Shown one piece after another: positions 16,263-56,914 of a stretch of DNA of 64,000 nucleotides. Under the pieces are notes generated by a model. It was not told where the DNA came from. It did not search any database and saw only the letters and a program-made list of their open reading frames with translations. Each line of letters opens with the position of its first letter. The first letter of the stretch is position 1. The DNA comes from Flavobacterium phycosphaerae (GTDB taxonomy: Bacteria > Bacteroidota > Bacteroidia > Flavobacteriales > Flavobacteriaceae). The position numbers were made by a program, and so were the translations under genes. Where the stretch lies: positions 1,270,501-1,334,500 of the forward strand of contig NZ_JAAATZ010000001.1 of NCBI RefSeq assembly GCF_010119235.1, read 5' to 3'.

Positions 16263-17806
16263 TTATTCCTTAATCTCATTTCCTTGGTTGTCAAAAAAAT
16301 GATATTCAAGATACGTGTAAGCGTCACGTGGTATGATTTTCACCCATTTCTTATGCTCGAAAAACCATTTCGAACGTAAGGATGGAAAACCTTTTTTAAG
16401 GTATGCTGCCACAAAAGGATGAACATTTAATTTCACACCACTGTGGTCTTTGATAATTTTTTCAAGCGAAAAAGCAATCTTATCAATAATCTGAATCGGT
16501 GCATCTACATCACCGGCCAGGTTGTTAGGATTTTCTTCCCTTGTCTCGATATTTACTTCAGGTCTTACCCTTTGACGAGTAATTTGAACCAAGCCAAATT
16601 TACTTGGCGGTAATATCTTGTGTTTGGCTTTATCATCGCTCATTTCTTCTCTAAGGAAGTTGAACAACACTTGACGATTGTCTGAATTTTGCATATCGAT
16701 AAAATCGACTACAATAATACCTCCCATATCCCTCAAACGCAATTGTCTTGCAATCTCGGCAGCGGCAATCATATTTACTTCCAACGCGGTGTCTTCTTGG
16801 TTGGTGGCTTTGTTTGAACGGTTCCCGCTGTTCACGTCAATAACGTGTAATGCTTCGGTATGTTCAATAATCAAATAAGCCCCTTTACTCATCGAAACGG
16901 TGCGTCCGAAGGAAGTTTTGATTTGTCGCTCAATGTGGTATTTCTCAAACAATGGCGTGTCTTTCGACTGATAAAGTTTAACGATTTTTTGTTTGTCAGG
17001 AGCTATTTCGGCTAAATAGTCCCGGGTTTGTTGGTACAACTCTTCATCATCTATTTGAATACTGGTAAAAGTATCGTTGAATACGTCTCTCAGGATAGAA
17101 GAGGCTTTGTTAAGCTCTCCCAAAATCTTGGACGGATGATGAGCAGTTGGTAATTTTTTACACATTGCAGTCCATCTATTCATTAAGTTCTGCAAATCTT
17201 TTTCTAATTCGGCTACGTTTTTGCCTTCGGCTACTGTTCTCACAATAACCCCAAACCCCTTTTGTTTGATAGCCTGTACCAGTTTCTTAAGTCGGTCTTT
17301 TTCTTCTTTCGATTCTATTTTTGAGAAATAGAAACACGATCTGAAAAAGGAACCAAAACCACATAACGACCCGCGAACGAAAGCTCAGAGCTTATTCTCG
17401 GACCTTTTGTAGAAATAGGTTCTTTGACTACTTGAACCAGTACTGATTGATTGGCACTCAGAATATCTGATATAGCACCGTTTTTATCAATCTCTTTCTC
17501 AAACTGGAAGTTTTTTAGGGAGAAATCTTTTAGTTTACCTGCGCTTACAAGTTTTATGAATTTCAAATAAGAAGCTAAGTTAGGACCCAAGTCATGATAA
17601 TGTAAAAAGGCATCTTTTTCATAGCCTACATTTACAAAAGCAGCATTAAGTCCGGCAACAGGCTTTCTGATTTTAGCAATAAAAATATCGCCTACCTGAA
17701 AGTTGCTGGTTTCTTCTTCTTTGTGTAATTCAATTAGTTTTCCATCTTTTAATAAGGCAAAATCTACAGCATCTTCACCACTACGGATGATTAATTCTTT
17801 ATTCAT
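16263..17806 (-). CDS. rng: Ribonuclease E/G family protein, frameshifted by one base
   Basis: Two adjoining frames together make one RNase G. The N-terminal part (from the ATG at 17806) has the S1-type RNA-binding region KIRKPVAGLNAAFVNVGYEKDAFLHYHDLG. It ends prematurely at ISQK-stop. The rest resumes in another frame with IESKEEKDRLKKL and contains the RNase E/G catalytic segment (IDVNSGNRSNK ... GGIIVVDFIDM), whose two aspartates bind magnesium. The break is a run of five T on the plus strand (17318-17322); a sixth would restore a 514-residue protein, the usual Bacteroidota size. RNase G matures rRNA and degrades mRNA. The break is probably a sequencing error (see findings). Confidence 0.9.
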
Positions 17807-17830
17807 GTTGTAAATTTTTATCCATATTTT

Positions 17831-18025
17831 CAATTAAGGATTAAGGATTTCTGGATTAAGGATTTTGTAATTCCTAATTCCTAATTCCTAATTCCTAAAT
17901 CAACAATAGGGATGGATTAAACATTTTAAACAGGTATTGTTTTACCCGACGAATAAAGATTTAGGATTTAGGATTTTTAGATTTAGGATTTTAATTCCTA
18001 ATTCCCATTTCCTAATTCCTGAATC
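17831..18025. repeat. Heptamer inverted-repeat tract
   Basis: The stretch upstream of rng is built from degenerate tandem copies of AATTCCT and of its complement-like AGGATT(A/T), arranged as two successive inverted arrays (17836-17899 and 17960-18025). Each array can fold on itself. No gene or promoter box was seen in it. Related words occur at 6590-6612, and a similar arrangement with AATTACG at 53080-53140. Confidence 0.7.
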
Positions 18026-18056
18026 AAAATTCAATTTCAATGAACGTTTAAAAAAA

Positions 18057-18082
18057 GAAAAGTAGTTTAGAACTACTTTTTC
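18057..18082 (-). terminator. Terminator of the hup/basic-protein operon
   Basis: AAAAGTAGTT and AACTACTTTT form a perfect 10-bp stem with a 3-base loop, followed on the minus strand by a T-rich run. The stop codon of the 30-residue gene (18073-18075) lies inside the stem. Confidence 0.8.
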
Positions 18083-18165
18083 TTTTTGTGTCGGTTAGCT
18101 CTCGCTCTCTTTTTACGTTTGTGAGTAGCTACCTTATGTCTCTTTCTTTTTTTACCACTTGGCAT
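18073..18165 (-). CDS. 30-residue highly basic protein, probably ribosome-associated
   Basis: An ATG at 18165 opens a 30-codon frame beginning MPSGKKRKRHKVATHKRKKR and ending with a lysine run. About two thirds of the residues are K, R or H. It starts 32 bases after the stop of hup and ends inside a terminator stem, so it is a proper operon gene and not a chance frame. From memory, near-identical short peptides occur at this place in many Bacteroidota genomes. The composition (extended, lysine/arginine-rich, no hydrophobic core) resembles tiny ribosomal proteins such as bTHX. A ribosomal role is inference; whether it corresponds to the bL38 protein described in the F. johnsoniae ribosome cannot be decided from sequence here. 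Confidence 0.75.
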   Translation of the reverse strand: MPSGKKRKRHKVATHKRKKRARANRHKKKK

Positions 18166-18197
18166 AAGTTAGGTTTTTTGTGATTAATAAATAAGTT

Positions 18198-18491
18198 TTA
18201 TACTGCTACTTCAGTATTTGTTTTTACTGATTCTACAAATACTTTTGCAGGTTTGAATGCCGGAATATTGTGAGCAGGAATTTTGATGGTTGTGTTTTTA
18301 GAAATGTTTCTTCCTGTTTTTTCAGCTCTTGTTTTGATAATGAAACTACCAAAACCTCTTAAATAAACATTGTCTCCTGTTTCTAAAGAAGTTTTTACTT
18401 CTTCCATAAACGCTTCAACAGTGGCTTGAACATCTCCTTTTTCAAGACCTAATTTTTCTGAAATTTTCGCTACGATATCTGCTTTCGTCAT
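18198..18491 (-). CDS. hup: HU/IHF-family DNA-binding protein
   Basis: 97 residues from the ATG at 18491. Small dimeric nucleoid protein: helical N-terminus MTKADIVAKISEKLGLEKGD, then the DNA-binding beta arm containing GFGSFIIKTRAEKTGRNISKNTTIKIPAHNIPAFKPAK, which matches the HU signature closely (GFG-F, R-GRNP-like with ISK replacing the usual P region). It bends DNA and compacts the nucleoid. A longer frame to 18536 adds residues that overlap the promoter and is rejected. The 30-residue basic gene follows in the same transcript. Confidence 0.92.
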   Translation of the reverse strand: MTKADIVAKISEKLGLEKGDVQATVEAFMEEVKTSLETGDNVYLRGFGSFIIKTRAEKTGRNISKNTTIKIPAHNIPAFKPAKVFVESVKTNTEVAV

Positions 18492-18533
18492 TTTCTTTCG
18501 TATTTTAATATTATGTGTAATTTTTTGAGGTTG

Positions 18534-18607
18534 CAAATATAGGAATTAAAAAAACAATATTTCAAGCATAATCTATTAAATTTTAATCACATAAAGATTT
18601 ATTTTTG
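18534..18607. promoter_or_regulatory. Divergent hup/mutY promoters
   Basis: Minus strand: TTG (18565-18563), 21-base spacer, TATATTTG (18541-18534), then a 42-base leader to hup. Plus strand: TATTTTTG (18600-18607), 17 bases before the mutY ATG. Confidence 0.65.
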
Positions 18608-18624
18608 CAGACCACATTTTAGCT

Positions 18625-19710
18625 ATGAAATTTCCCAACTTATTAATTCAATGGTACTTACAGCATAAGCGTGATTTGCCTTGGCGGCATAATACAAATC
18701 CGTACACGATTTGGCTTTCCGAAATTATGCTTCAACAAACTCGAGTAGCACAAGGATTGCCTTATTTTTTGCGTTTCACCGAACGCTTTCCAACGGTTTT
18801 TGAATTGGCAAACGCTTCTGAAGAAGAAGTACTGAAACTGTGGCAAGGTTTGGGTTATTATTCCCGAGCACGTAATTTGCATAAAACGGCTCAACAAGTA
18901 GCGTTTGAATACAACGGAGTATTTCCGAAATCCTATAAAGAGTTACTCCTTTTAAAAGGTATTGGCGAGTATACCGCAGCAGCCATTGCTTCTTTTGCTT
19001 ATAACGAAAATGTTCCTGTGGTAGACGGAAATGTTTTCAGGGTTTTATCGCGTTATTTTGATGTGGATACGGATATCGCTTCGGCCGGAGCCAAAAAAGA
19101 ATTCACACAATTAGCTGCTGAATTGCTGCCCAAAGGCAAAGCCAATCTTTTCAATCAAGCTATAATGGAGTTTGGTGCCCTACAATGTGTACCCAAAAGT
19201 CCCGATTGTCAAAACTGTATTTTCAACGACAGTTGTGCCGGTTTGCAAAAGAAAAAAGTAGCACAGCTCCCGGTCAAATCGAAGAAATTGAAAGTGAGAG
19301 AACGGTTTTTTAATTATTTGGTTTTTTCAGATGAACAGGCTAATACTATTATTCAACAGCGAACTCAAAAAGGAATTTGGCACAATTTATATGAATTCCC
19401 ATTACTCGAAACCGAAACCGCTACAACCGATGCTGCTATTTTAACATTAATTCAAAATCAAAGTTTTGTTAGTAATGCTATTACCCAAATTGAGTTGGGT
19501 TCTCCGGAAACGATTGTTCACAAATTGTCGCACCAACATTTGAATATCAAGTTTTGGAAAGTAACGGTAACGGGTCGTCTTGAAAACGGAATCTCTTGGG
19601 AATCAATGCAAAAAATGCCATTTCCGATTGTGATTTTTAATTTTATTGAAAAAGATTCGTTTCAGATTTCAAAAAAAGTAGTAAATTTGAAAGACCCGAA
19701 GCGCAACTGA
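18625..19710 (+). CDS. mutY: A/G-specific adenine DNA glycosylase
   Basis: 361 residues. It removes adenine mispaired with 8-oxoguanine. The N-terminal catalytic domain shows LPWRHNTNPYTIWLSEIMLQQTRV, the helix-hairpin-helix GIGEYTAAAI (about residues 112-121) followed by the catalytic aspartate in VVDGNVFRVLSRYF. The [4Fe-4S] cysteine set is C-x6-C-x2-C-x5-C in CVPKSPDCQNCIFNDSC (about 191-207). The C-terminal NUDIX-like domain that reads 8-oxoG is present (residues about 230-345). It leads the conserved mutY-ssb-gldE-gldD gene order of gliding Bacteroidota. Confidence 0.95.
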   Translation: MKFPNLLIQWYLQHKRDLPWRHNTNPYTIWLSEIMLQQTRVAQGLPYFLRFTERFPTVFELANASEEEVLKLWQGLGYYSRARNLHKTAQQVAFEYNGVFPKSYKELLLLKGIGEYTAAAIASFAYNENVPVVDGNVFRVLSRYFDVDTDIASAGAKKEFTQLAAELLPKGKANLFNQAIMEFGALQCVPKSPDCQNCIFNDSCAGLQKKKVAQLPVKSKKLKVRERFFNYLVFSDEQANTIIQQRTQKGIWHNLYEFPLLETETATTDAAILTLIQNQSFVSNAITQIELGSPETIVHKLSHQHLNIKFWKVTVTGRLENGISWESMQKMPFPIVIFNFIEKDSFQISKKVVNLKDPKRN

Positions 19711-19751
19711 ATTGTTTGGAGCGCAGCGGAATAAAAACAAATGCAGAAAAG

Positions 19752-20189: not shown

Positions 20190-20214
20190 TATTGTTTAAC
20201 TAACCCAATACCCC

Positions 20215-21510
20215 TTGGACCCGGAGCCCAGTCTTACCTTTTTAGCGTCAGTTGATACCAATTTACTCTTTGGAAGTATTGGAATTGCTTTTTTCTTGTT
20301 TTCTTCAGCTATGGTTTCTGCCGCAGAAGTAGCTCTTTTTTCGCTTACCCAAAAAGATATCAAAACGTTGTTCGAAGAAGACACCGTCAAAGCCAATTTG
20401 ATTTCAAAATTACTGCAACGTCCCAAAAAACTTTTAGCCACTATCTTAATAGCCAATAATTTCAGTCATATAGGTGTGGTTATTATTTTTTCCTTTGTTG
20501 GTAATAATCTTTTTGCAGCCATAACATCACCCTTATTGAAGTTTTTAGTTGAGGTACTTTTGGTAACCTTCCTTATTTTACTGTTTGGTGAAGTACTACC
20601 CAAAGTATACGCAAGCAGAAACAACATCAAATTTTCAAAATTTATAGCCAATCCTATTTTGGTCTTGGACAAATTGTTGTCTCCAATCAGTTTGCCCATG
20701 CGGGCAGTGACGGTTTTTTTGCATGAAAAACTCGGGAAGCAAAGAACCAATATATCCGTAGATCAATTGTCACAGGCTTTGGAGTTGACGTCAACAGATG
20801 ACACCAGTTCAGAAGAACAAAAAATCCTGGAAGGCATCGTTTCTTTTGGGAACACCGATACTAAACAAGTCATGAGTCCGAGGATTGATGTTTTTGCTTT
20901 GGAAATTGAAGAAACTTTTGCCGAAATTTATCCCAAAATAATTGACAAAGGCTATTCCCGAATTCCGGTATACCGCGAAAGCATAGATCAAATTGAAGGC
21001 GTGTTGTTCGTGAAAGACTTGATTCCACACATTCACAAAAAAGAATTCGAGTGGAATAAATTGATGCGACAGCCGTTCTTTGTGCCCGAAAATAAAAAAC
21101 TGGATGATTTGCTTAAAGATTTTCAGCGGTTGAAAAGCCATTTGGCGATAGTGGTAGACGAATACGGAGGAACCTCGGGTTTGGTGTCCTTAGAAGATGT
21201 AATCGAAGAAATTGTGGGTGATATCTCGGACGAGTTTGATGATGAGAACATCAATTTTTCACAGATAGACGATAAGAATTTCCTCTTTGAAGGCAAAATT
21301 AATTTAAAAGATTTCTACAGAATTGTTGATGTAGACGAAGATACGTTTGAAGACCGAAAAGGGGAGGCGGAAACTTTGGCCGGATTCATTTTGGAACTGT
21401 TGGGAAACTTTCCGAAAAAAGGGCAAAAAATTCATTTTTCGAATGTATATTTCACCGTTGAAGGCGTAGACAAAAAAAGAATAAAACAACTCAAAGTAAC
21501 ACTTGAATAA
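20215..21510 (+). CDS. gldE: Gliding motility-associated protein GldE (CNNM/CBS family)
   Basis: 431 residues. An N-terminal DUF21/CNNM membrane domain (four hydrophobic segments between residues about 15 and 165, including FFLFSSAMVSAAEVALFSL) is followed by a pair of CBS domains with MSPRIDVFAL and GYSRIPVYRES. After these the DEYGGTSGLVSLEDVIEEIVGDI block and a C-terminal CorC/HlyC domain close the protein. Homologues are magnesium or cobalt efflux type proteins; in F. johnsoniae GldE overlaps functionally with GldD in gliding. The start codon is TTG at 20215, supported by the following DPEP residues, which I recall as the usual beginning of GldE. gldD follows immediately. Confidence 0.93.
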   Translation: MDPEPSLTFLASVDTNLLFGSIGIAFFLFSSAMVSAAEVALFSLTQKDIKTLFEEDTVKANLISKLLQRPKKLLATILIANNFSHIGVVIIFSFVGNNLFAAITSPLLKFLVEVLLVTFLILLFGEVLPKVYASRNNIKFSKFIANPILVLDKLLSPISLPMRAVTVFLHEKLGKQRTNISVDQLSQALELTSTDDTSSEEQKILEGIVSFGNTDTKQVMSPRIDVFALEIEETFAEIYPKIIDKGYSRIPVYRESIDQIEGVLFVKDLIPHIHKKEFEWNKLMRQPFFVPENKKLDDLLKDFQRLKSHLAIVVDEYGGTSGLVSLEDVIEEIVGDISDEFDDENINFSQIDDKNFLFEGKINLKDFYRIVDVDEDTFEDRKGEAETLAGFILELLGNFPKKGQKIHFSNVYFTVEGVDKKRIKQLKVTLE

Positions 21511-21518
21511 TTTAAGCA

Positions 21519-22084
21519 ATGAAAAAATAATAATTGGGGGTTTTTCAATAGCATTCCTTTTGACAATGATCATAGGTTGCAAAGATGATGTGTTGCCAAA
21601 ACCTGCAAGCCAGCTCCGATTGGATTATCCAGTAGCCAAATATGCTTCGTTTAGTAATCATTGCCCAATTGAATTTGAAATCAATGAAGATGCAGTCATT
21701 AAGGAAGACAAAAATTGCGAGTTTTCAATTCATTACCCCAAAATGAAGGCAACCATCTACCTTACCTATAAAACGGTTAACAATGATATAGACAATTTGT
21801 TGCGAGATGCCCAAAACCTGACCTATAAGTTGCATACTTTAAAAGCAGATGAAATTATAGAATTACCTTTTATCAACAAAGAGAAAAGGGTTTTTGGTAC
21901 TTTTTATGATGTTACCGGTAATGCGGCAACCAACTCTCTTTTTTATGCGACCGACAGTATTAAGCATTTTGTAACGGGTTCCGTTTACTTTTATGCCAAG
22001 CCCAATTATGATTCAATATTGCCGGCAGAAAGTTATGTTAAAAATGACATGCAGCATTTGATGGAAACCATTAAGTGGAAATAA
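21519..22084 (+). CDS. gldD: Gliding motility lipoprotein GldD, start frameshifted
   Basis: GldD is an outer-membrane lipoprotein needed for gliding and surface-protein secretion in Flavobacterium. The frame reads through PLPKPxSQLRLDYP-like residues (DVLPKPASQLRLDYP), ARYASF-type and ending METIKWK, typical GldD. The annotated start is unclear: an ATG at 21519 reads M-K-K then stops, because the A run (21522-21527) has six bases. With seven, the N-terminus becomes MKKIIIGGFSIAFLLTMIIG followed by the lipobox cysteine, a textbook lipoprotein signal. The only in-frame alternative as sequenced is a TTG at 21503 inside gldE. With the added base the protein has 188 residues. A sequencing error is likely. 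Confidence 0.9.
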
Positions 22085-22634: not shown

Positions 22635-23501
22635 ATGAAATCACAACAGTTGAAATGGTTCATCTTAATCGTACTGGCTCTTATTTGGGGGAGCTCTTTT
22701 ATATTGATAAAAAAAGGATTAATTGGTTTGAATCCATTTCAGTTGGGCTCGTTGCGCATTATCTTTTGTGCTGTATTTCTTTTGATTGTTGGTTTTAAAA
22801 GTTTAGCGGCTATTCCACAACGTCAATGGAAATACGTTGCGTTGACTTCGTTGTTCGGAACCTTTGTACCGGCGTATCTTTTTGCCATAGCTGAAACTAA
22901 AGTGAGTAGTTCGGTTTGTTCTATATTGAATTCGTTGACGCCTTTGAATACCTTAATTTTAGGTTCAATAGTTTTTGGATTGAATTTCAAAAGAAGCCAG
23001 TTTGCGGGTGTTTTAATTGGATTGCTCGGAACAGCGGTTTTGATTTTCAGTGGCGATACGCAGCAAGGAAGTGAGAATTACTACTATGCTGTTTTAGTAT
23101 TGGTTGCTACTATTTGTTATGCAACGAATGTGAATTTGATTAAAAAATATTTGTCTGATGTAAAACCCTTGAGCATTACTACGGGCAACTTTGTAGTGAT
23201 GTTGGTTCCGGCTGTTGTTATTTTATTTTGTACTGATTTCAGTGCTAAAGTGAACTTACCGGTTACACAACACGCTATGTTGTTTGTGCTGATTTTGGGC
23301 GTTGTAGGAACGGGAGTGGCTAATGTTATCTTTTATAAACTAATACAAATTTCTTCTCCGGTCTTTGCTTCTTCGGTTACTTATTTGATTCCGATAGTGG
23401 CTTGTTTGTGGGGCATGCTGGATAACGAAATGTTGACCCCGTTGCAGTTTTTCGGAGCGTTTATTATTTTGGTCGGTGTTTATTTGGCGAATAAGAAATA
23501 A
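22635..23501 (+). CDS. DMT superfamily (EamA) transporter
   Basis: 288 residues from the ATG at 22635. Two EamA halves, each about five helices: the first begins FILIVLALIWGSSFILIKKGL, the second VLVATICYATNVNLIKKYL. About ten transmembrane segments in total. Members export metabolites such as amino acids or nucleosides, but substrate cannot be read from sequence. A TTG at 22614 gives seven extra residues and is less likely. The gene ends in its own terminator. Confidence 0.88.
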   Translation: MKSQQLKWFILIVLALIWGSSFILIKKGLIGLNPFQLGSLRIIFCAVFLLIVGFKSLAAIPQRQWKYVALTSLFGTFVPAYLFAIAETKVSSSVCSILNSLTPLNTLILGSIVFGLNFKRSQFAGVLIGLLGTAVLIFSGDTQQGSENYYYAVLVLVATICYATNVNLIKKYLSDVKPLSITTGNFVVMLVPAVVILFCTDFSAKVNLPVTQHAMLFVLILGVVGTGVANVIFYKLIQISSPVFASSVTYLIPIVACLWGMLDNEMLTPLQFFGAFIILVGVYLANKK

Positions 23502-23502
23502 A

Positions 23503-23531
23503 AAAAGTCCCGAGTAATCGGGACTTTTTAT
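23503..23531. terminator. Bidirectional terminator
   Basis: AAAAGTCCCGA and TCGGGACTTTT pair around GTAA, with A and T runs on both sides. Shared by the EamA gene and the convergent M16 operon. Confidence 0.9.
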
Positions 23532-23552
23532 TTAAGCTATAGGGAGATTCAA

Positions 23553-27930: not shown

Positions 27931-28641
27931 TTAGATTTTCAATCCTTTGACGAGGTTGTACTCTTGGGAGTCGATGCCGTATTGTGATAAGACCATATCC
28001 TTAATTCTTTTGGCTGTAGCGGAGAGTTGTTTGAAGCCGTCTCTTCGGGTGGCGATTAAGGGTTTATAAACGGCCAATTTTTGGGATACATTGTTTGTGG
28101 CGTTGGTTGCACTTGATAACAAACTTTGCAGTTTTGAAATTTTTATGCTTTCATTGATTGGGGCATACTCTGGGCCAAAATTGGTTAAGAGTGTTATCAT
28201 ATCACCGAAGTAGACTAGTTGGCTACCAAATGATTTTTCGGAGCGGCTGATGGTGTTTTCTGTGGAGTTTTCGGTGATGGTTATTCTTCTTCCTTGTCCT
28301 CTTATTTTTAGTATCAAGGTTTTTATGTCGTGGTATTGCTGGGAAGTGGCTCCTAATCTGGCGCTGATATTGGCGCGTATGGGAGGGAGTAGTTTTGAAA
28401 TGGAATTGGCTTCTTTTTCGAATAAGCGGCGTCTGTCGAGTGCTGCTTTTGAATAGTCGTGATGTTTTGAGGTGTGTTGTTCCTGCACTACACGCAGTGC
28501 ATTGGTTTGTGCCTGGAAAGCTGTAGCGGTAAGGGCTTCATCCCCAGGGTCATAACCGGATAGCGTGTTGAGGAATTCAATTAGTTTTTCTCCTTCTGTT
28601 AAACGTGAGCTAAATGAAGCTTTTGAGTTTGAATGTTTCAT
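27931..28641 (-). CDS. Hypothetical helical protein
   Basis: 236 residues, no signal peptide or membrane segment, basic, strongly helical with several coiled-coil-like stretches (KLIEFLNTLSG, AALDRRRLFEKEANSISKLLPPIR, KLQSLLSSATNATNNVSQKL). I recognise no named domain. Proteins of this general look are found singly in Flavobacterium genomes but I cannot assign a function. It lies between the rpmA terminator and a minisatellite, with a proper ATG at 28641. The third codon positions look like its neighbours. Confidence 0.65.
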   Translation of the reverse strand: MKHSNSKASFSSRLTEGEKLIEFLNTLSGYDPGDEALTATAFQAQTNALRVVQEQHTSKHHDYSKAALDRRRLFEKEANSISKLLPPIRANISARLGATSQQYHDIKTLILKIRGQGRRITITENSTENTISRSEKSFGSQLVYFGDMITLLTNFGPEYAPINESIKISKLQSLLSSATNATNNVSQKLAVYKPLIATRRDGFKQLSATAKRIKDMVLSQYGIDSQEYNLVKGLKI

Positions 28642-28747
28642 GATTTCTATTTTTTATGAATTAATAATGCAATTGAGAAATCAAGTAGCATGCCAAAAAT
28701 GTAAGAAACAACCCTCTTAAGATGAATTTAAGAATTGACTATTAGGA

Positions 28748-28978
28748 GGTTATGGAATAGCAATCGTAATTATAAAGGTAGCGGATGCTTTTACAAAAGT
28801 AGCTTCCGTTATTATAAAAGTAGCCGATGAAGTTACGAGGGTAGCAAGTATCATTACAAGAGTAGCCAGTGTTGTTATAAGTGTAGTAAGAGCAGTTATG
28901 GGAGTAGCAGGTCTTGTTATAGGAGTAGCAATAGGAGTTACAGGAGTAGCAGGTGTAGTTACAAATTGGCACTCAGCC
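28748..28978 (+). repeat. 21-bp minisatellite, about ten degenerate units
   Basis: Units start every 21 bases at 28748, 28769, 28790, 28811, 28832, 28853, 28874, 28895, 28916, 28937, with a decayed unit at 28958. The consensus is GTTA(T/C)A-rGrGTAGCA followed by seven less conserved bases. Because 21 is divisible by three, frames stay open on both strands, giving seven-residue repeats such as VTGVAGV. The rest of the 498-base gap (28642-29139) holds no recognised gene, only a terminator and a REP-like hairpin at its right end. No frame has a good start codon with a plausible length, so I treat it as non-coding. Confidence 0.8.
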
Positions 28979-29072
28979 TTTATGGGTGTTGGGATTGGGG
29001 TGGTTTTTTGGGATGAAAAATGCACGGAGTGTAAAACCGTGTTATCGGAGTCGAAATGACAAAGATGGGAAC

Positions 29073-29107
29073 AAAAAACCCTCACAGTGCTGCGAGGGTT
29101 TTTTTAT
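29073..29107 (-). terminator. Terminator after ahcY
   Basis: On the minus strand AAACCCTC and GAGGGTTT form the outer stem, with further pairing of CAG and CTG inside, followed by a T run. Confidence 0.85.
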
Positions 29108-38378: not shown

Positions 38379-38450
38379 TTTACTACAACCTTAAAATAAG
38401 TTTCGTTAATTTAGTTAATTAAATTAGTGGAACTTTTTTATTTGATGTTT

Positions 38451-39589
38451 ATGAAAAAAACGCTGCAACTTTTTATTTTATTGTTTTCCAATTTTCTTTT
38501 CAGTCAATATGAAATGATTGATAAAAAAATGGATGACATGCCAAAGCAGTATGAAAACAGTATCACAGCCATTGCTGATTACATCAATCAAAATTTCACA
38601 TCGGAGGAGGACAAAATCAGAGCTGCTTTTTATTGGACAACCAGTACTATAAGTTATGACGTGGCTAGCATGTATAAGCCCAAAATTCAAACTACCGAAG
38701 AAAAAATAAACAGCGCTTTAAAAACCAAAAAGGGAGTTTGCATGCACTATGCCGAAGTTTTCAATGCAATAGTCAATCAAATGGGTATGAAATCATATGT
38801 GGTTGACGGCTATACCAAACAGTTCGGCAAAATAGCCCGATTGTCCCATTCGTGGAATGTTTGTACTATAAACGGAAAGTGGTATTTGTTTGATCCCACT
38901 TGGGGCTCCGGCTATGTGAATGAAGAGGTGTTTTATAAAAAACAGAACGATGCTTATTTTAAACCCAGCGCAGCCGACTTTTTAAAAACACACATGCCCT
39001 TTGATTATATGTGGCAGCTCAATGAAAAACCCATTGCCAATGATGATTTTTATAATGATATTACGGAGTCTGTTGACAGCAGCACTTCTTATGATTTTGC
39101 GGCCGCCATCAACGAATTTGAAACTTTGTCTGAACCCGACAAAATGAGTAAGCAACTAGAGCGGATGGAAAAAACCGGATTAAAAAATGATTTCATCAAA
39201 GAGAAATATAATGCCTTGAAAAGAATTTGGAAGGGTATAAAAACAACAGCAGTATTCCAAAATTACAGTTAATCGTCTCCGAATTTAACCTGGCCAATAA
39301 ATTGCTGAATGATTTTATTCTTTACCGAAACAGTAGGTTTACACCCATGCTTTCAGATCAAAAAATTAAAGAAAAAGTACAAACTCCTTATGATAAATGG
39401 TTGTTTTGTCAACAGGAATTGGCTAAAATTGTTGATGTCAGCAAAGAAAATCTGCTAAATTTCAATTCGCTAAAAAAGGCAGTAGCTTTTGCCCAAAAAA
39501 GATTTGATGCCCAATTGAATTTTGTAAACGACTATCTTTCCAAAAGTCCGGCAGAAAGAGCCAAAGCTTTTATGGTAAAACGCAAATAG
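38451..39589 (+). CDS. Secreted transglutaminase-like protein, frameshifted
   Basis: Two adjoining frames make one protein. The first, from the ATG at 38451, has a signal peptide (MKKTLQLFILLFSNFLFSQ) and a transglutaminase-like core: GVCMHYAEVFNAI with the catalytic cysteine, LSHSWNVCTINGKWYLFDPTWG with histidine and aspartate. It ends KRIWKG-stop after a break at TTT (39226-39228), where a fourth T restores the continuous frame KRILEGYKNNS. The second part (to 39589) is a helical tail. The restored protein has 379 residues and is probably periplasmic. Function is unknown; Cys-His-Asp are all present. Confidence 0.82.
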
Positions 39590-40743
39590 TTAGTTAGTTG
39601 CTTTTTTAAACGAAACCTGCATCGTAGTGCCTTTGCCTATTTCGGAATGCAGTACTTTGATTTTGCCTTTATGGTATTCTTCTACTATTCTTTTGGTCAA
39701 TGAAAGGCCTAAGCCCCAACCTCTTCTTTTGGTAGTAAAGCCGGGTTCAAAAACGCGCTTGTACTGATTTTTAGGAATCCCTTTTCCGGTATCAGTCACT
39801 AAAATTTTTACCAAATGATTATCCTCTTCAATAACAACAGATAACTTTCCTCTACCTTTCATAGCGTCGATAGCATTTTTGACTAAATTCTCCACGGTCC
39901 AACTGTGCAAGGCTACATTCAGAGAAACCATAACGGGTTTTTTAGGTGCTTTAAAAGAAAACTCTACTTGTTTTGAAAAGCGCGATCGTAAATAGTCAAA
40001 GGATAGTTCCGTTTCTTCCACAATGTTTTTGACTTCCAGTACAGGCTCTGAACCAATTTTTGAAAAACGATCGGTTATGGTTTGTAAACGAGTAATGTCT
40101 TTTTCAATTTCATGCACGGTGGTGGCATCCACATTATCGGCTTTCATGATTTCCAGCCAACCAATCAAAGACGATAAAGGAGTTCCGATTTGATGCGCCG
40201 TTTCTTTTGCCATTCCGGCCCAAAGCTTATTCTGAGTGGCCATTTTGGTGCTTTTGTAGAAATTATATACTACAGCACCAAACAAGAAGATAATTAATAA
40301 TAGAGCAACAGGATAATACTTTAGTTTGGTTAGTAAGGAGGAATCGCCATAATACAAACTATGCGCTTTGCCCTCAGCTATCTGCATGATAATAGGTTCA
40401 TTCTGGTTTTTTAATTTTTGTAAAAATGCCGTTAGTTTAACCTTGTCTTTTAAAATGTCATTATCAATATTAATCGTGTTGATTATCGAATCCTTTTCGG
40501 TTACTATAATAGGGATAGTGGCTTCTGTGATAATTTGAAACGGAAGCTCTAAATCAACATTAGCTTCAGGATCGGCACTGTTGATTTTTTTTGAGCCAGC
40601 GCCCAATTCTGCATTTTAACGCGTTCCTCATTTTTAAAGATTTGAAAAAAAGAATAAGTATTCCACAATATCAGGCTCACTATGACAAATGAGGCCAAAA
40701 TGATAATCCAACGGGTAATGTTTCTCTTCTCCGAAAACTGCAT
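39590..40743 (-). CDS. Sensor histidine kinase, frameshifted
   Basis: From the ATG at 40743 the frame has one N-terminal membrane helix (WIIILASFVIVSLILW), then a periplasmic region, with a second helix (YPVALLLIIFLFGAVVYNFY) before the catalytic part. The first frame ends QKKSTVP-type because the A run read on the minus strand has eight bases (plus-strand T 40575-40582); nine would continue as QKKINSADPEAN into the long frame, giving 384 residues. H-box AKETAHQIGTPLSSLIGWLE (catalytic His), N-box NLVKNAIDAM, and G-boxes DTGKGIPKNQYK and RRGWGLGLSLTKRI are all present. No response regulator is adjacent. Probably a sequencing error. Confidence 0.9.
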
Positions 40744-40935
40744 GTAGTTTATTTTGGTTTAAAAGTAATGAAAAAATGATAATTGCTAAAGTTCGCTCGG
40801 GAATGATGAAAAAAGAAGAATCATTTTCTTGTTTACTAGAGAAAACTTTTGATTGTCTTGGTTTTATAAAAAATAATATTGCTTCAATAGTAAATTTATT
40901 ATATTTACGAATCAATTCAATTAAAACTATAATTT

Positions 40936-43718
40936 ATGAAAAAATTACTTTACTGGCTTTTCTCTTTTTGGCCGTTTTCTCAAAAGGATACGCTCAACTT
41001 TCGGAAGGATTCGAAGGAGCTACTTTTCCACCACCGGGTTGGACAAGCTTTATTGGTGAGAATGGTTTTGGGACTAATGCTAATTGGGATTTAACTACTG
41101 ATCCAACTTATGTGTCTTCAGGCTCCCAAGCAGCTTATGTAAGCTATGAATCAGGAAGCGGAGGTGTTAACGAAGACTGGTTGGTTACACCACAGTTTAC
41201 CGTAACAGCCCCTAATGTTTTATTGGCTTTTTATGAATCACAAAACTATTCATTTAATTATGGTACAGAATATACCATAAGAGTATCAACAACTTCGGCT
41301 ACGGATATTTCTTCGTTTGTCACGATTGATACTAAAACGGAAGACGATTTGCCAGTAGATTTAATGACACAAAGAGCAGTAGATTTAAGTGCTTATCTTG
41401 GCCAAACAATCTATGTTGCTTTTGTCATGTCACAAGATGATGGGGATGATTGGGCGATTGATGATGTTTCATTACAAGCAGATGTAGATGCTCCAAATTG
41501 TGCCACTATGACTTTTCCTGCCGATGAAGCTACCGGTATAGCCGTTGGACCTGAAGTTACCTTAACATGGGATGCTCCAACTACCGGAGATGCACCGGCC
41601 AGCTATGATGTGTTGTTTGGAGACACTTTACCATTAACATCGATTGATAACTTTTACGGGAATTATACCACAACATCGGCAAACATTGTTTTGACGGCTT
41701 ATGATACCACTAGTTATTGGGCAGTTATTCCTAAAAACTTAGCGGGAGAGGCTATCGGTTGCAGTACCTTCAGTTTTACTACACAATCGCCTTCAGGCTC
41801 AGCTTGTACTAGTGCGCCTTATGGGCAATATCCTCTGGATGTTGTTTATACACCTCAAGTTTGTGACGGGGCAACAGAAGAAAATCTGACTGAATTTGCA
41901 GATGGTTATGCCGGAGAATATTCATCAATGAATGTGACTAACGGACTTACTTATCAGTTCATAAGTTCAGTGGCTACTGATTATATTACTATCAGTTCTG
42001 CTGATGCTTCTATTGTGTACGCTTCAGGAACTACACCGGTTTCTTGGACAGCAAGTTCTGATACCGAAATTCGTTTTTATACACATATAGATAATGCTTG
42101 CGGAAGTGAGCAAGAACTTAGAAACCGTTCTATAATTTGCAGCGGGTCTACAGCTACCATTCCTGATTGTGCTGTAATGACATACCCTGCCGATGGGGCT
42201 AATGATATTCCTCTTAATCAGGCGGTTACTTTTACATGGGAGCCGGCTCCAACCGGTGATGCTCCTGTTAGCTATGATTTATATGGTGGTGCTGCATTGC
42301 CATTAACTTCAGCTGATTTTGTTGCTAATTATACAACTACTTCCGCTGATTTTATTTTTGACACCTATAACACTACTATTTATTGGATGATTGTTGCTAA
42401 AAACTTAGCTGGTGAAGCTGTTGGATGTACACCATTTACTTTTACTACGGTAATGTCACCTGGTTATTGTTTAGATGCGCCTAGTGGTGAATATCCATTT
42501 GGGGATATTTTCACAAATGACATTTGTGATGGTGCAACAGCACAAGAAATAGTTCCAGATGGTTATGCAGGGGAGTATTCTAGTGTTGCGGTAACCGCTG
42601 GGTATACCTATGAATTCAGCAGTTCTATTGCTACCGACTTTATTACCATTAGTGATGTTGACGGTACGGTTTCTTTAGTTTCCGGAATAACTCCGGTTAC
42701 CTATACAGCTACAGCCGATGAAGTAGTACGTTTCTATACCCATGCTGACGATCAGTGTGCTGCCAATACTGATTTTAGATCAAGATTGGTAATGTGTAGC
42801 GGAGCAACCATTTCAGCACCTGACTGTGCTACCATGACTTTTCCGGCAGATGAAGCCATTGATGTACCGGTTAACACACCTGTTACTTTTACATGGGACG
42901 CACCAACTACCGGAGACGCTCCTGATAGTTATGATGTTTACGGAGGTATAGCACTGCCGTTAACAGCAGCAGATTTTATTGCTAATTTCACTACAACTTC
43001 TGCCGATTTCACTTTAACGACTTTCAATACCACATTCTATTGGATGGTAGTACCTAAAAATTTAGGAGGTGAAGCTACAGGTTGTGCCACCTTTAGTTTT
43101 ACTACTATGGCCTCTCCGGGTTATTGTTTAGATGCATTTGTTGATCCATGGCCAACAGATACATATACAGTAAATTCATGTGACGGGACAACAGTTGAAG
43201 ATATTACACCTGATGGTGATGGATATTCAGGAGAGTATTCAAATGTTAACGTTACCGCCGGATTTACCTATGAATTCAGCAGTTCAATAGCTACCGATTG
43301 GATTACGCTTAGTACAGATGATGGAGCTACAGCCGCCGCTTATGGGGCTAGTCCATTAACTTGGACAGCAACAGCTGATGGTGTGGTTCGTTTCTATACT
43401 CATACAGATGACCAATGCGGAACGGATAATCTGGAAAGATACCGCTCTATAGTATGTCAAGGAGATTTAGCAACGCCAACATTTGGCACCACTAATTTCA
43501 AAGTGTATCCAAATCCTGTAAAAGACGTTTTGAATTTATCTTCAGAGAAAAACATTACCAAAGTTCAAGTCACCAACCTTTTAGGTCAAGTGATATTGAC
43601 TAAATCACTAAATGCCACTCAAGGGCAGATAGATGTTGCTAATTTAGCTTCAGGAACTTACATGGTTAAAGTCACTTCAGATGATTTAGTAAAAACAATT
43701 AAAGTAATCAAAGAATAA
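40936..43718 (+). CDS. Large modular T9SS surface protein, start frameshifted
   Basis: 927 residues when one A is added to the run at 40939-40944: the N-terminus then reads MKKITLLAFLFLAVFSKGYAQ, a normal signal peptide. As sequenced the ATG frame leads into a different reading. Residues about 22-180 match a choice-of-anchor J domain (FEGATFPPPGWTSF, NEDWLVTPQF, DDWAIDDVSL). Then come three tandem copies of a fibronectin-like unit (begin DCATMTFPADEA or variants at about 41494, 42163, 42823) paired with a second unit (GYAGEYSSxxVT, YEFSSSIATDxITIS, RFYTHxDxQC). The last about 75 residues form a type A T9SS sorting domain ending KTIKVIKE. It is a secreted adhesin-like or enzyme-carrier protein. 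Confidence 0.87.
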
Positions 43719-50817: not shown

Positions 50818-50857
50818 AACAAAAAACCCGATTCAACTGAATCGGGTTTTTTTATTA
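50818..50857. terminator. Bidirectional terminator
   Basis: AAAAAACCCGATTCA and TGAATCGGGTTTTTT pair around three bases. Shared by the M3 gene and the convergent LRR protein gene. Confidence 0.9.
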
Positions 50858-51831
50858 TTCTTTTATCACTTTGGCATTTTTGATGACTCCGCCACCTTCA
50901 AGTTGTATCAAATAAACCCCTTTGGGCAAACCACTCAAATCAACACTATTGTCACCCTGCACACAGTCAAAAGAGTTGATGACTAACTGACCAAGCTGAT
51001 TAACCACCGAAATAGTAGTAAACAGGCCTTTAGGATTACTAAAGAAAACCTTTCCATTAGTAGGGTTAGGCGCTAGGGCAAGAGTAGTTGTCTCCGGCTC
51101 ATTGGTGCTCAACGAACAATCAGTAACAATACTTATAGGCTGTGTTATGCCACAGTTAGTTATAAAATTCTGTGCGGGTACCACTTCATTATCATCTACA
51201 CAAATTGAGGTAAGATTAGGGTTGTTCCAGCAACCGTTATAAGCGGTCTGTGTAAAGGTTTGCGCGTGGTTATTTCTAATGTTAATCCAGCTCAAATTGG
51301 GGTTTTCGTAACACCTCAATTGCTCAAAAAATGATTGTTGCTAAAGTCCAGATGCGTTAATGGATTTTGATCAATAATAAGTATTTTAAGAGCGACTAAT
51401 GTTGAAAAATCTACTTCTGTCAATTGATTACCTTCCAAAAGGAGAAACCACAAATTACTCAATCCATTCAGGTTTACAGTGGTTAGATGATTGCCTCCTA
51501 ATCCTAGTGTTTGAAGATTGGTTAAACTTGCTAAATTAGCAGTTAGAAGATTATTATTTACAATAGTTATGTCAAATATATTTGTAAAATATGCTATTCC
51601 TGTTAAGTCAACGATGTTTCCAGCTGTGATTGAAATAGTATAAACTGTTAAAGCTTCGCTTTGCTCTATCTCTCCATCATTATTGGCATCAATTTTTACA
51701 CCCCCTGCAATATAATTATTGGTGTCCGCTTGAAGTAATTTGGCTTTAAAGGCTAGGTCAGGAAAATTAATGACCTGCGCATTCAAGGCACTCAATGTTA
51801 AAACCAATACGGTTATTAGTATTCTTTTCAT
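50855..51831 (-). CDS. LRR-type T9SS protein, frameshifted
   Basis: Two frames make one secreted protein. From the ATG at 51831: signal peptide MKRILITVLVLTLSALNAQ, then leucine-rich-repeat-like segments (LTNLQTLGLGGNHLTTVNLNGLSNLWFLLLEGNQLTEVDFSTL). The frame stops at FLSN-stop, because AA (plus strand 51318-51319) should be AAA; with it the reading continues SNLRCYENPNLSWINI into the second part. That part ends in a type A T9SS sorting domain (LALAPNPTNGKVFF ... PKGVYLIQLEGGGVIKNAKVIKE). The restored protein has 325 residues. Probably a surface LRR protein; sequencing error likely. Confidence 0.85.
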
Positions 51832-53029: not shown

Positions 53030-53079
53030 AATATTTTATTTTTTTAATTAAAAATCTCTTTTAAAAGTAAATTACGAAT

Positions 53080-53140
53080 TACGAGTTTCAAATTACGAGT
53101 TAAAATAATCCGTAATTCTTAATTCATAATTCGTAATTAT
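53080..53140. repeat. Short inverted repeat tract between rpsB and tsf
   Basis: AATTACGAATTACGAG (53080-53095) has a near-perfect complement in ATAATTCGTAATT (53126-53138), with AAATTACGAG repeated in between. It is the same kind of tract as at 17831-18025, in a transcribed spacer. Confidence 0.6.
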
Positions 53141-53149
53141 TTTTTTGTT

Positions 53150-53958
53150 TTATTCTTCAGTCTTAGTTTCTGTAGCTTCTACTTCAGGAGCCGCTTCAAC
53201 AGCCGGTGCTTCAACAGCAGCAACTACTTCTACAGTTTCTTCAGCATCAACTTCAGGAGCAGCATCAGAAGTTCTGTTAGCTAATCCGTCTTTTACAGCG
53301 TCAGTTACTAAAGATAAAATTTTATCAATTGATTTTGAAGCATCATCATTGGCTGGGATAACGTAATCTACTTCACGTGGATCAGAGTTAGTATCAACCA
53401 TGGCGAAAACTGGAATGTTTAATTTTTGTGCTTCTTTGATTGCGATGTGTTCCGCTTTGATATCTACCACGAAAAGTGCAGCAGGTAATCTTGACATATC
53501 AGCGATAGAACCTAAGTTCTTCTCTAATTTGGCACGAAGACGATCAACTTGTAATCTTTCTTTTTTAGACAAAGTCATGAAAGTACCATCTTTTTTCATT
53601 TTATCAATAGAAGCCATTTTTTTAACGGCTTTACGGATAGTAACGAAGTTGGTTAACATACCACCTGGCCATCTTTCAGTGATGTAAGGCATGTTACAAG
53701 CTAATGCTTTTTCAGATACGATATCTTTTGCTTGTTTTTTGGTAGCTACGAAAAGTATTTTTCTACCAGATGCTGCAATTTTTTTCATGGCTTCATTAGC
53801 CTCTTCAATTTTGGCAGCGGTTTTGTATAGGTTGATAATGTGAATTCCATTACGCTCCATATAGATGTAAGGGCCATGTTCGGATCCCACTTACGAGTCA
53901 TGTGTCCGAAGTGAACACCTGCTTCTAATAATTCTTTAACGTCAATTTTGTTTGCCAT
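53150..53958 (-). CDS. rpsB: 30S ribosomal protein S2 (uS2), frameshifted
   Basis: The start is the ATG at 53958 ([29 protein letters not shown]). The frame then goes wrong because GGG on the plus strand (53871-53873) should be GGGG; with it the reading is [20 protein letters not shown], the canonical S2 continuation, and the downstream frame (to 53150) carries the rest, including [26 protein letters not shown], and [35 protein letters not shown]. The restored protein has 269 residues, with an acidic A/E-rich C-terminal tail. S2 is essential and single copy, so a real frameshift is implausible and a sequencing error is the best explanation. Confidence 0.95.
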
Positions 53959-53988
53959 TGTGTAATAGTTTACGTTCCGTGTTATAGC

Positions 53989-54025: not shown

Positions 54026-54134
54026 TAGATGCTAAACTAATTCCCTTTTTACAAGGAATATCGACAACTTTGTTTTAAATTCTAATTTAATTGTAAAAAA
54101 TAATCTGAAAATATATTCTGGTAAATACCGAATA

Positions 54135-54521
54135 TTAACGTTTCGAGAATTGGAATCTCTTTCTCGCTTTTTTCTGACCGAATTTTTTACGTTCTACCAT
54201 TCTTGGATCTCTGGTTAGTAATCCTTCTGGTTTTAGGATGCTTCTGTTTTCATCCCCTACTTCACACATTGCTCTAGCAATAGCCATTCTCACAGCTTCT
54301 GCTTGACCTGTTGAACCACCACCGTATACATTTACTTTTACGTCAAAGTTGTCAGCGTTGTTTGTCATAGACATTGGCTGTAATACTTTGTACTGTAAAG
54401 TAGCTGTTGGGAAGTAGTTGTTGAATTCTCTTTTGTTAACGGTAATTTTTCCAGTTCCTTCTGAAACGTAAACACGTGCTACTGCACATTTTCTTCTACC
54501 GATTTTGTGAATAACTCCCAT
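54135..54521 (-). CDS. rpsI: 30S ribosomal protein S9 (uS9)
   Basis: 128 residues. [37 protein letters not shown] is the normal S9 N-terminus. The C-terminus RMVERKKFGQKKARKRFQFSKR has the basic tail whose last residues reach the P-site tRNA. Its ATG overlaps the rplM stop by one base (TAATG). Confidence 0.97.
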   Translation of the reverse strand: MGVIHKIGRRKCAVARVYVSEGTGKITVNKREFNNYFPTATLQYKVLQPMSMTNNADNFDVKVNVYGGGSTGQAEAVRMAIARAMCEVGDENRSILKPEGLLTRDPRMVERKKFGQKKARKRFQFSKR

Positions 54522-54976
54522 TACTTAAGATCGTTTAGGTTAACTGTTTTAGGTTTTTGAGCTCCTTGTTTGTGCTCAGTTCCTACAACAACATTTAAAT
54601 TTCTGAAAAGTTCTGCTCCTAATTTGTTTTTAGGTAACATTCCTTTCACTGCTTTCTCCACTAGTAAAGCAGGGTTTTTTGATTGCAAAACCTTTGCAGT
54701 CAAACTTCTTTGCCCACCTGGGTAACCTGTGTGTCTGATGTACGTTTTGTCATCCAACTTGTTACCGGTAAGGTTGATTTTCTCTGCGTTGATAACAATT
54801 ACGTTATCTCCACAGTCGACGTGAGGGGTGTAACTTGGCTTGTATTTTCCTCTCAAAAGCATCGCAACTTTTGAAGCAAAACGACCTAAGTTATGACCTT
54901 CAGCATCTACAATGATCCACTCTTTTCCAGAAGTGGCCTTGGTTGTAGATTGTGTCTTGTAGCTTAATGCGTCCAT
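54521..54976 (-). CDS. rplM: 50S ribosomal protein L13 (uL13)
   Basis: 151 residues. [67 protein letters not shown] is typical L13, followed by [15 protein letters not shown] and GMLPKNKLG. First gene of the translation cluster, with a perfect promoter and a 44-base leader that includes TCCC..GGGA. rpsI is coupled by TAATG. Confidence 0.97.
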
Positions 54977-55019
54977 AATATTTTTTTAATTAAACATTCC
55001 ATTCCCAATAAAGGGAGTG

Positions 55020-55050
55020 CAAAAGTACAATTATTTATTAATAAAGCAAA
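55020..55050 (-). promoter_or_regulatory. rplM-rpsI promoter
   Basis: On the minus strand TTTG (55050-55047), 19-base spacer, TACTTTTG (55027-55020). Perfect consensus. The 5' leader to rplM contains a short hairpin TCCC/GGGA. Confidence 0.8.
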
Positions 55051-55211
55051 TACGATTTTTTAAATTTTTTTATAAAGCGACTAGTTTTGCTTAAAATCCT
55101 TTAAATGAATGCACTTAACAACCCAAAAGCAACTTGATTTTGAGGCCATAAAACCAAAGTTTTTCCCCCATTTGCGCTCAACTTTGATTTCGATGTGCCG
55201 AGGGACAGAAA

Positions 55212-55219
55212 TATTTTTG
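55212..55219 (+). promoter_or_regulatory. Promoter -7 box of the LacI regulator
   Basis: TATTTTTG, 27 bases before the ATG at 55247. TTTG at 55183 lies 25 bases upstream, slightly too far for a standard -33 box. Confidence 0.5.
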
Positions 55220-55246
55220 CTATTTTTACGCTTTAACCCGGATAAA

Positions 55247-56272
55247 ATGAAATCGAAAGCGACATTAAAACAAATTGCCAAAGAACTAGGCGTTTCTGTT
55301 TCCACTGTTTCCAAAGCACTAAATGGAAGCCCTGAAATCAGTGAGCCTACTAAGCAACGCGTACAAGAATATGCCAAATTGAAAAATTATAAGCCGAATG
55401 TGATTGGTTTGAGCCTTAAGAACAGGAGAACCAAAACGATAGGTGTTATTATTCCGAATATATTAAACTCTTTTTTTGCTAAAGTATTCAGCGGTATTGA
55501 AAAGGTGGCTGATGCCAAAGGGTATAAAGTAATTACTTGTATCTCGAATGAATCTTTAGAAAAAGAAATCAATGCGCTCGAAATGCTGAGTAACGGAACT
55601 ATAGACGGTTTTATTCTTTCCATTGCGGAGGAATCTCAAAAGATGCATAAGTTCAATCACTTTACCACCATCATCAACGAAGGTACTCCAATAGTAATGT
55701 TTGACCGCATAGCCGATGAGGTAAATTGCGATAAAGTAGTGGTGGATGATTTTGAATCGGCCGTTAATGCTACTGAACATTTAATCAAAACTGGTTGCCG
55801 AAAAATTGCGTTACTCTCTACCATCGATAATTTAAGTGTTGGCAAACTCAGAGAAAAAGGGTTTTACAAAGCCATAGAAAGCAAAGGGGTTGCCGTTGAT
55901 AAAAACCTGATTATTCTAACAGACAACACAGACGATTTCGATAAAAAAGCGGCTGATTTTTTTACCAAATACAAGCCCGATGGTGTGTTTGCTCTTGACG
56001 AACATTCTTCTATTGCGGCAATGAAATTGGGGCTAAAGGCAGGTTTGAAAATCCCCGAAGACTTATCCATCATTGGTTTTGCCGATGGCGTTTGGTCGCG
56101 CCGTATGACTCCGAGCTTATCAACGGTCAGTCAACACGGTCCCGAAATTGGTGAAGTGGCAGCACAATTGTTAATTGATAAATTGGAAAGTCAGGAAGAA
56201 ACGTTCACCTTTTCAACAACTACCGTTAAAACCGAATTGCGACAAAGAGAATCTACAAAGAAGTTAGTTTAA
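55247..56272 (+). CDS. LacI family transcriptional regulator
   Basis: 341 residues from the ATG at 55247. A DNA-binding helix-turn-helix plus hinge, MKSKATLKQIAKELGVSVSTVSKALNGSPEISEPTKQRVQEYAKLKNYKPN, precedes a periplasmic-binding-protein-like effector domain (TIGVIIPNILNSFFAKVFSGIEKVADAKGY, GFILSIAEES, PIVMFDRIAD, RKIALLSTIDN, PDGVFALDEHSSIAAMKLG, SIIGFADGVWSRRMTPSLSTV). Sugar-type effector is likely but not identified. The longer open frame to 55109 adds residues upstream of the promoter and is rejected. It ends 20 bases inside the convergent methyltransferase gene. Confidence 0.94.
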   Translation: MKSKATLKQIAKELGVSVSTVSKALNGSPEISEPTKQRVQEYAKLKNYKPNVIGLSLKNRRTKTIGVIIPNILNSFFAKVFSGIEKVADAKGYKVITCISNESLEKEINALEMLSNGTIDGFILSIAEESQKMHKFNHFTTIINEGTPIVMFDRIADEVNCDKVVVDDFESAVNATEHLIKTGCRKIALLSTIDNLSVGKLREKGFYKAIESKGVAVDKNLIILTDNTDDFDKKAADFFTKYKPDGVFALDEHSSIAAMKLGLKAGLKIPEDLSIIGFADGVWSRRMTPSLSTVSQHGPEIGEVAAQLLIDKLESQEETFTFSTTTVKTELRQRESTKKLV

Positions 56273-56914
56273 AAATATAATTGGTTTCCACCCATTCCTT
56301 TTTTTCCAGAACCAAAGTAAAAGCTATGGCATTTTTTAAGGCTATGGCTTTTATTTTTTCTATTGCACAATCCTGTGAAAGTATCATAAAGCAATTAGTG
56401 TCAATGGTTATATGATTGGGCAGTTGTTGGAAGAGTTTTTCAAAGTAATCAAAATTTTCGCCGCAAAACCAAGCTTGCTCTTTTACATTTTGGGCGGTTT
56501 TGGGATAATAGGGCGGATTGATAACGATGTAATCAAAAGGTTGGCTTTCTATACTTTGAAACAAATCAGAATAAACAGCTTTCAGGGTTAAATTATTTTT
56601 AGAAGCGTTAGTTTCCAAAAAATCCAAAGCAATTTGATTAATGTCTGAAGCGGTGACTACTGCTTTTTCTTTGCTGCCAAAAGCGAAATAATACCACTAC
56701 CACAACCCAATTCTAAAAAGGTCTTGTTTTTCAATTCGGATTCTTTTATGAAATCCAATAAAATTTTGGTGCTTAATGTCAGTTGTGGCGGAAAAACATC
56801 AGGGTGTATTTTGATTTGGATACCGTCATAGGTATAGTTCCTGGGTTTGGAATAGTAGGCATTCAAACCCAATTTCAAAAAAGGATGTGTTATTTTCTTT
56901 AAAAATGTTCTCAT
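56253..56914 (-). CDS. Small class I methyltransferase, frameshifted
   Basis: Two frames make one 220-residue protein. The first, from the ATG at 56914, holds the SAM-binding FLELGCGSGIISLLAAKKK motif, then stops because the A run on the minus strand has five bases (plus T 56664-56668); six would restore AAKKKAVVTASDINQIALDFLETNASKNN. The second part has the substrate/catalytic NPPYYP motif (FDYIVINPPYYPKT), the [N/D]PPY signature of N6-adenine or glutamine methyltransferases such as HemK/PrmC. The substrate is not known. It directly abuts the radical SAM gene and is the last gene of the long operon. Likely sequencing error. Confidence 0.88.

What the first reader, a model, noticed from the sequence alone, without database searches (positions are those of the whole stretch)
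16263..56914. Eight genes each broken by one missing base in a homopolymer run
rng (17318-17322), gldD (21522-21527), transglutaminase (39226-39228), histidine kinase (40575-40582), modular T9SS protein (40939-40944), LRR protein (51318-51319), rpsB (53871-53873) and methyltransferase (56664-56668) all lack exactly one base in a run. In every case one added base restores a multiple of three and family-like residues at the joint. All eight are contractions and none are expansions, and one is the essential rpsB. This is the signature of long-read consensus error, so annotation built on the raw sequence will miscall at least eight genes as pseudogenes or split genes.
Basis: partly seen in the sequence, partly recalled or inferred. 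Interest (0 to 1): 0.8.

Follow-up and report, generated by a model that had tools for sequence, protein, structure and literature searches.

The report
One-base sequencing slips across Flavobacterium genes
Eight neighbouring genes in this Flavobacterium genome each look broken by one missing base, but the same kind of slip also turns up elsewhere in the genome, even in genes a cell cannot live without, so these are almost certainly reading errors in the assembled sequence and not biology.

Summary
All eight genes read as one base short against their relatives. Six (rng, transglutaminase, histidine kinase, LRR protein, rpsB, methyltransferase) are split into two frames where relatives have one open frame. 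In two (gldD, the T9SS protein) only the start codon is out of frame; gldD is the weakest case. Position-chosen stretches of the same genome compared with F. aquatile show four more -1 breaks in 67.7 kb of aligned coding sequence, one of them in metG. Reverse comparisons leave 0 real breaks in 106.5 kb of F. aquatile and 1 in 131.5 kb of five other congeners. rpsB is single-copy; the four broken genes tested show no relaxed selection; the sites lie at or near short homopolymers. This matches a published nanopore assembly error profile (false deletions after runs of 2-8). Biological interest is low. Practically, annotation of this assembly may miscall some 50-450 genes, by extrapolation from four events.

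The parts
16263..17833 (-). rng (RNase E/G family) split into two frames; joint at the T5 run 17318-17322
   Evidence: 6 of 6 congeners carry one open frame across it; DNA alignment of the same 6 congeners puts a 1-base gap at the run; Pfam RNase_E_G on the C-terminal piece
21503..22084 (+). gldD: body intact, start codon ATG out of frame by one at the A6 run 21522-21527
   Evidence: TIGR03512 over residues 18-193; 6 of 6 congeners align to the body; congener starts compared by eye
38427..39589 (+). transglutaminase-like protein split; joint between about 39197 and 39272 (T3 39226-39228 or A5 39239-39243)
   Evidence: single ORFs in 3 of 6 congeners span both pieces, net -1; joint residues compared; Transglut_core
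39590..40767 (-). sensor histidine kinase split; joint at the T8 run 40585-40592
   Evidence: 6 of 6 congeners, net -1; residues at the joint compared by eye; run coordinates
40936..43718 (+). T9SS-sorted surface protein; start codon and signal peptide out of frame by one at the A6 run 40939-40944
   Evidence: homologues P0003-P0005 begin at this point in frame; Por_Secre_tail
50855..51831 (-). LRR protein with T9SS sorting tail, split; joint at the A6 run 51326-51331
   Evidence: 4 of 41 loci examined span it as one frame, all -1; the five closest congeners have open frames of 339, 343, 232, 369 and 329 aa against 173 here
53150..53982 (-). rpsB (ribosomal protein S2), single copy, split near codon 29; joint at 53871-53873
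   Evidence: S2 model split over two frames, these two being its only matches in the genome; 6 of 6 congeners; 22 of 22 congener loci that hold the gene are intact, a 23rd does not hold it
56253..56914 (-). small methyltransferase (MTS domain) split; joint at 56664-56674
   Evidence: 19 of 41 loci examined place the shift here; 18 of 22 congeners with a match have frames of 217-268 aa against 147 here; half-profile matches on each piece

Best explanation
The eight breaks are consensus errors of a long-read assembly. The basecaller or consensus step under-called the length of short homopolymers by one base, shifting the reading frame, while the living cell carries intact genes. Shown: net -1 at each site, intact frames in relatives, recurrence elsewhere in the genome, rarity in congeners. 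Inferred: that reads would support intact frames, and that long reads were used.
For: Net -1 in all eight and in all four real breaks found outside the window. A run of A/T >=5 or G/C >=3 lies at or within about 6 bases of all 12 joints; 29% of coding positions sampled in the window lie that near one (seven joints placed by DNA alignment, five by eye). Single-copy rpsB and metG are hit. The four broken genes tested (rng, rpsB, kinase, metG) keep dN far below dS, as do seven intact genes. Same-method controls: 0 real in 106.5 kb of F. aquatile, 1 in 131.5 kb of five other congeners; 8 of 9 events fall in this genome, binomial p = 0.0005, or 4 of 5 and p = 0.01 with the window left out. Kastor (PMC12007338, passages): in a MinION assembly most indel errors were false deletions, tied to homopolymers of 2-8, most after 4-5, more often A/T. 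Homopolish (PMC8011154, passages): uncorrected homopolymer indels shift frames and inflate pseudogene counts.
Against: No reads were seen and the sequencing method is unknown. Long runs are not clearly depleted (A/T runs of 8 at 17 per 100 kb against 29 in F. aquatile, which by my own estimate, no call, is about what the higher GC predicts), so there is no blanket length cap. Not every long-read error profile is one-sided: in Homopolish's table unpolished drafts have far more false insertions than deletions, and deletions prevail only after some polishers. dS to F. aquatile is high or saturated, so very recent real mutations would not show in dN/dS. The five-congener control reuses one region, so its 131.5 kb are not independent genes.
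Confidence: 0.93

Rival explanations
1. Real, recent slippage mutations in the sequenced cells (a mutator or a decaying genome): the DNA does carry the breaks.
For: Slippage also favours runs; one congener carries a -1 of its own in an EamA transporter gene.
Against: Single-copy rpsB and metG are broken (essential by general knowledge); 12 of 12 are contractions; the extrapolated number of fresh breaks could hardly coexist in a viable cell; the scans showed no second frame change in the split genes, and constraint is normal in the four genes tested.
Confidence: 0.04
2. Phase variation: a subset (the start-codon A6 tracts of gldD and the T9SS protein, and the LRR surface protein) are real on/off switches captured in the off state.
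For: Tracts directly after ATG and surface or secreted products fit the usual gene classes (general knowledge); two of six congeners also have an A tract of 7-8 just after the gldD start.
Against: Tracts of 6 are short for phase variation (general knowledge); the same defect hits rng, rpsB, a methyltransferase and metG; four of six congeners lack such a tract at the gldD start.
Confidence: 0.02
3. The cell reads through by transcriptional slippage or programmed frameshifting, so the sequence is right and the genes still work.
For: Known in AT-rich symbionts with long A tracts (recalled, from no call).
Against: Runs here are 3-8, shorter than the tracts I recall for efficient slippage; congeners have plain open frames at the same sites; no shared motif across the 12 genes was evident by eye, though none was sought by a tool; rpsB would depend on it.
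Confidence: 0.01

Closest known systems
Gene-fragmenting indel errors in long-read assemblies (Kastor, PMC12007338; Homopolish, PMC8011154)
   Same: False single-base deletions at homopolymers of 2-8, mostly A/T, breaking many unrelated genes across one genome (passages read).
   Different: Here technology and reads are unknown, and the rate, about 6 (1.6-15) per 100 kb of aligned coding sequence outside the window, cannot be tied to a named chemistry.
Phase-variable homopolymer tracts
   Same: Single-base changes in a run switch a frame.
   Different: Short tracts, essential genes included, one direction only, and intact congeners.

Membership tests
Long-read consensus indel error | Net single-base contraction that breaks a frame | tested here: met
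   8 of 8 in the window and 4 of 4 real sites outside are net -1; gldD rests on start positions only
Long-read consensus indel error | Located in homopolymers | tested here: met
   12 of 12 joints at or within about 6 bases of A/T>=5 or G/C>=3; background 29%. Seven joints placed by DNA alignment, five by eye; placement ambiguous for transglutaminase, methyltransferase and rpsB
Long-read consensus indel error | Indifferent to gene function, essential genes included | tested here: met
   single-copy rpsB; metG
Long-read consensus indel error | Spread through the genome and above the rate in relatives | tested here: met
   4 in 67.7 kb aligned outside the window, in 4 of the 9 stretches (of 16 taken) that gave aligned sequence; 0 real in 106.5 kb of F. 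aquatile; 1 in 131.5 kb of five congeners
Long-read consensus indel error | Highly contiguous assembly typical of long reads | tested here: met
   two contigs, 3,273,945 and 32,649 bases
Long-read consensus indel error | Raw or accurate reads disagree with the consensus at the sites | not testable with these tools
   no reads held
Phase-variable homopolymer genes | Long tracts confined to contingency genes | tested here: not met
   runs of 3-8 and housekeeping genes hit
Phase-variable homopolymer genes | Mixed tract lengths in the population | not testable with these tools
   no reads held
True pseudogenes | Relaxed constraint or further lesions | tested here: not met
   dN much below dS in pieces of rng, rpsB, kinase and metG, as in seven intact genes; the other genes were not tested and very recent loss would not show

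The most novel reading that the evidence does not exclude
The sequence is correct and this Flavobacterium tolerates single-base frameshifts throughout its genome, essential genes included, by efficient slippage or frameshifting at short homopolymers.
Probability: 0.01. Interest if true: 0.9.

Novelty: not a real feature. Interest (0 to 1): 0.08.

Why it matters
As biology it does not matter. As data quality it does: this genome scores as 99.79% complete, yet by extrapolation from four events (my arithmetic, about 3 Mb of coding sequence assumed) some 50-450 of its genes may be split, misstarted or called pseudogenes. Any claim of gene loss, fission or pseudogenes based on it should be checked against relatives first.

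Tried and rejected
A +1 candidate at L071:6899 was dropped: it lies in front of the start of what I recognise by eye as rplX, not inside a gene. Apparent breaks in congeners were sorted as follows. L052:4651, L055:3376, L058:10664 and L066:322 come from one ORF antisense to the M16 peptidase genes (query at window + 25398; the real genes are on the minus strand); judged by coordinates. L132:3760 is the echo of this genome's own metG break; judged by coordinates. L062:2882, L065:4718 and L067:9182 come from the upstream extension of the RF-1 ORF that overlaps the DUF4301 gene; judged by coordinates, not aligned one by one. L052:13312 comes from an ORF whose target frames hold stops. L064:8731 (EamA, G017) was kept as real.

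Long-run depletion: looked for a missing tail of long homopolymers and saw none beyond what GC would explain by my own estimate.

rng as a recurrent break: 7 of the 120 homologues listed (2062 found) are short, 326-432 aa. All 7 are in frame with a full-length homologue from their first residue, so I take them as contig-edge or start-call truncations; their contigs could not be read.

Single-frame tblastn matches across the methyltransferase break (first five shown) looked like counter-evidence. The three that I opened are extensions through stops with poor identity on the far side, each beside a 75-82% identical match in the other frame.

A same-species comparison was not found: the rpsB homologue listed first, P0241, is 236 of 240 and 27 of 29 identical on the two pieces, and the rng homologue listed first is 96% identical.

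A search for papers holding Flavobacterium, nanopore, frameshifted and homopolymer returned none. One search gave a listing only.

Full report
What was checked. The window is C1:1270501-1334500 of a two-contig, 3.31 Mb genome. The genus is Flavobacterium: of 19 named loci found with a window protein, 7, including the four listed first, are Flavobacterium, and the same-genus genome G013 is Flavobacterium aquatile, judged from a contig of 603,587 bases shared by P0167 and G013 C5. Syntenic stretches of six congeners were taken and their 324 ORFs compared with the window by tblastn.

Six internal breaks. rng, the histidine kinase and rpsB are each one open frame in 6 of 6 congeners and two frames here. 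The transglutaminase is one frame in the 3 of 6 congeners that matched it. In all four the net difference is one missing base. Of 41 further loci examined, many not holding these genes, 4 span the LRR joint, all -1, and 19 span the methyltransferase joint, 18 with -1 and one with -4, which is the same frame. Of 22 congeners that matched the methyltransferase piece (199 genomes searched, this one included), 18 have frames of 217-268 aa against 147 here; the other four matched shorter, partial or unrelated frames. The five closest LRR congeners have frames of 339, 343, 232, 369 and 329 aa against 173 here. For rpsB, 21 of 23 congener loci showed an intact frame by motif; of the other two, one is intact by alignment and one does not contain the gene.

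Two misframed starts. gldD and the T9SS protein have intact bodies. What is displaced is the start codon: the ATG followed by six A is one base out of frame with the rest. The T9SS homologues P0003-P0005 begin exactly there in frame, and P0002 reads the segment in frame after a longer start. For gldD the evidence is the position of congener start codons, compared by eye, and is weaker; two of the six congeners also have a tract of 7-8 A near that start. Calling these two genes broken is fair only for the start.

The kinase joint is at T8 40585-40592 and the LRR joint at A6 51326-51331. The transglutaminase joint is not fixed. In rpsB the seven congener matches shown have a different base within the run, so a lost G is only one possibility.

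Is it the genome or the window? Sixteen 20-kb stretches chosen by position (15 of C1, up to 2.32 Mb, and one of C2) were compared with 63 stretches, 1.25 Mb, of F. aquatile. Nine of the 16 gave aligned coding sequence. One search gave nine sites in this genome; one, in front of rplX, was dropped. Of the eight left, four are in the window and four outside, all -1: an FG-GAP/UnbV T9SS protein (L069), a PorV2-like protein just under its curated cut-off (L070), metG (L074) and a GlgE-like protein (L081). Aligned coding sequence was 36.8 kb in the window and 67.7 kb outside, giving 5.9 (1.6-15.1) per 100 kb outside, or very roughly 50-450 genome-wide. The outside sample is the fair one, since the window was picked for its breaks; the method misses breaks near gene ends, such as gldD and the T9SS protein.

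Controls. The reverse comparison gave 2 apparent sites in 106.5 kb of F. aquatile, both judged echoes by coordinates, and 7 in 131.5 kb of the other five congeners, 6 judged echoes and 1 real (an EamA gene in G017). Comparing the five with F. aquatile gave one more apparent site, dropped. With the window counted, 8 of 9 real events fall in this genome (binomial p = 0.0005); without it, 4 of 5 (p = 0.01). The five-congener stretches cover one shared region, so they are not independent.

Why error and not biology. rpsB has no second copy and is essential by general knowledge; so is metG. Pieces of the four broken genes tested are as constrained as intact genes (dN 0.007-0.18 with dS from 0.29 to saturated; intact dN 0.06-0.28). 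All 12 breaks are contractions. All 12 lie at or within about 6 bases of a short run, where 29% of sampled coding positions would; part of this is built in, because five of the joints were placed by eye with the run in mind. Published assessments describe this pattern: in a MinION assembly most indel errors were false deletions, tied to runs of 2-8, peaking after 4-5, more in A/T (PMC12007338, passages), and systematic indels in homopolymers shift frames and multiply pseudogene calls (PMC8011154, passages). The latter also shows that unpolished drafts can be dominated by insertions instead, so one-sidedness depends on the pipeline. Long runs are not clearly depleted here, so the fault is sporadic.

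Verdict. Observation confirmed with corrections; interpretation supported at about 0.93. It is an assembly artefact of a well-known kind, useful as a warning to annotators and of little biological interest.

Noticed in passing
L064:8731 (G017, congener): A real-looking -1 break in an EamA transporter gene of one congener, the only one kept in the control comparisons.
   Followed up: partly
window 17830-18030: Dense short direct repeats of 'aattcctaattcc' and 'ttaaggatt' type upstream of rng (read by eye).
   Followed up: no
window 1007-1135 and 23480-23535: Stretches with many scattered short matches in F. aquatile and other congeners, perhaps terminator-like or dispersed palindromic repeats.
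   Followed up: no
window 53069-53144: Stretch between tsf and rpsB that recurs at several other places in G013, on both strands.
   Followed up: no
P0122, P0123, P0182, P0237: Four of seven short metagenomic rng homologues begin at residues 149-157 of the full-length protein; in frame, so probably start calls or contig ends, but clustered.
   Followed up: partly
window 27931-29085: Two ORFs (236 and 111 aa) without Pfam match, in a stretch where the six congeners searched show no DNA match; named loci do match 27934-28653 as protein.
   Followed up: no
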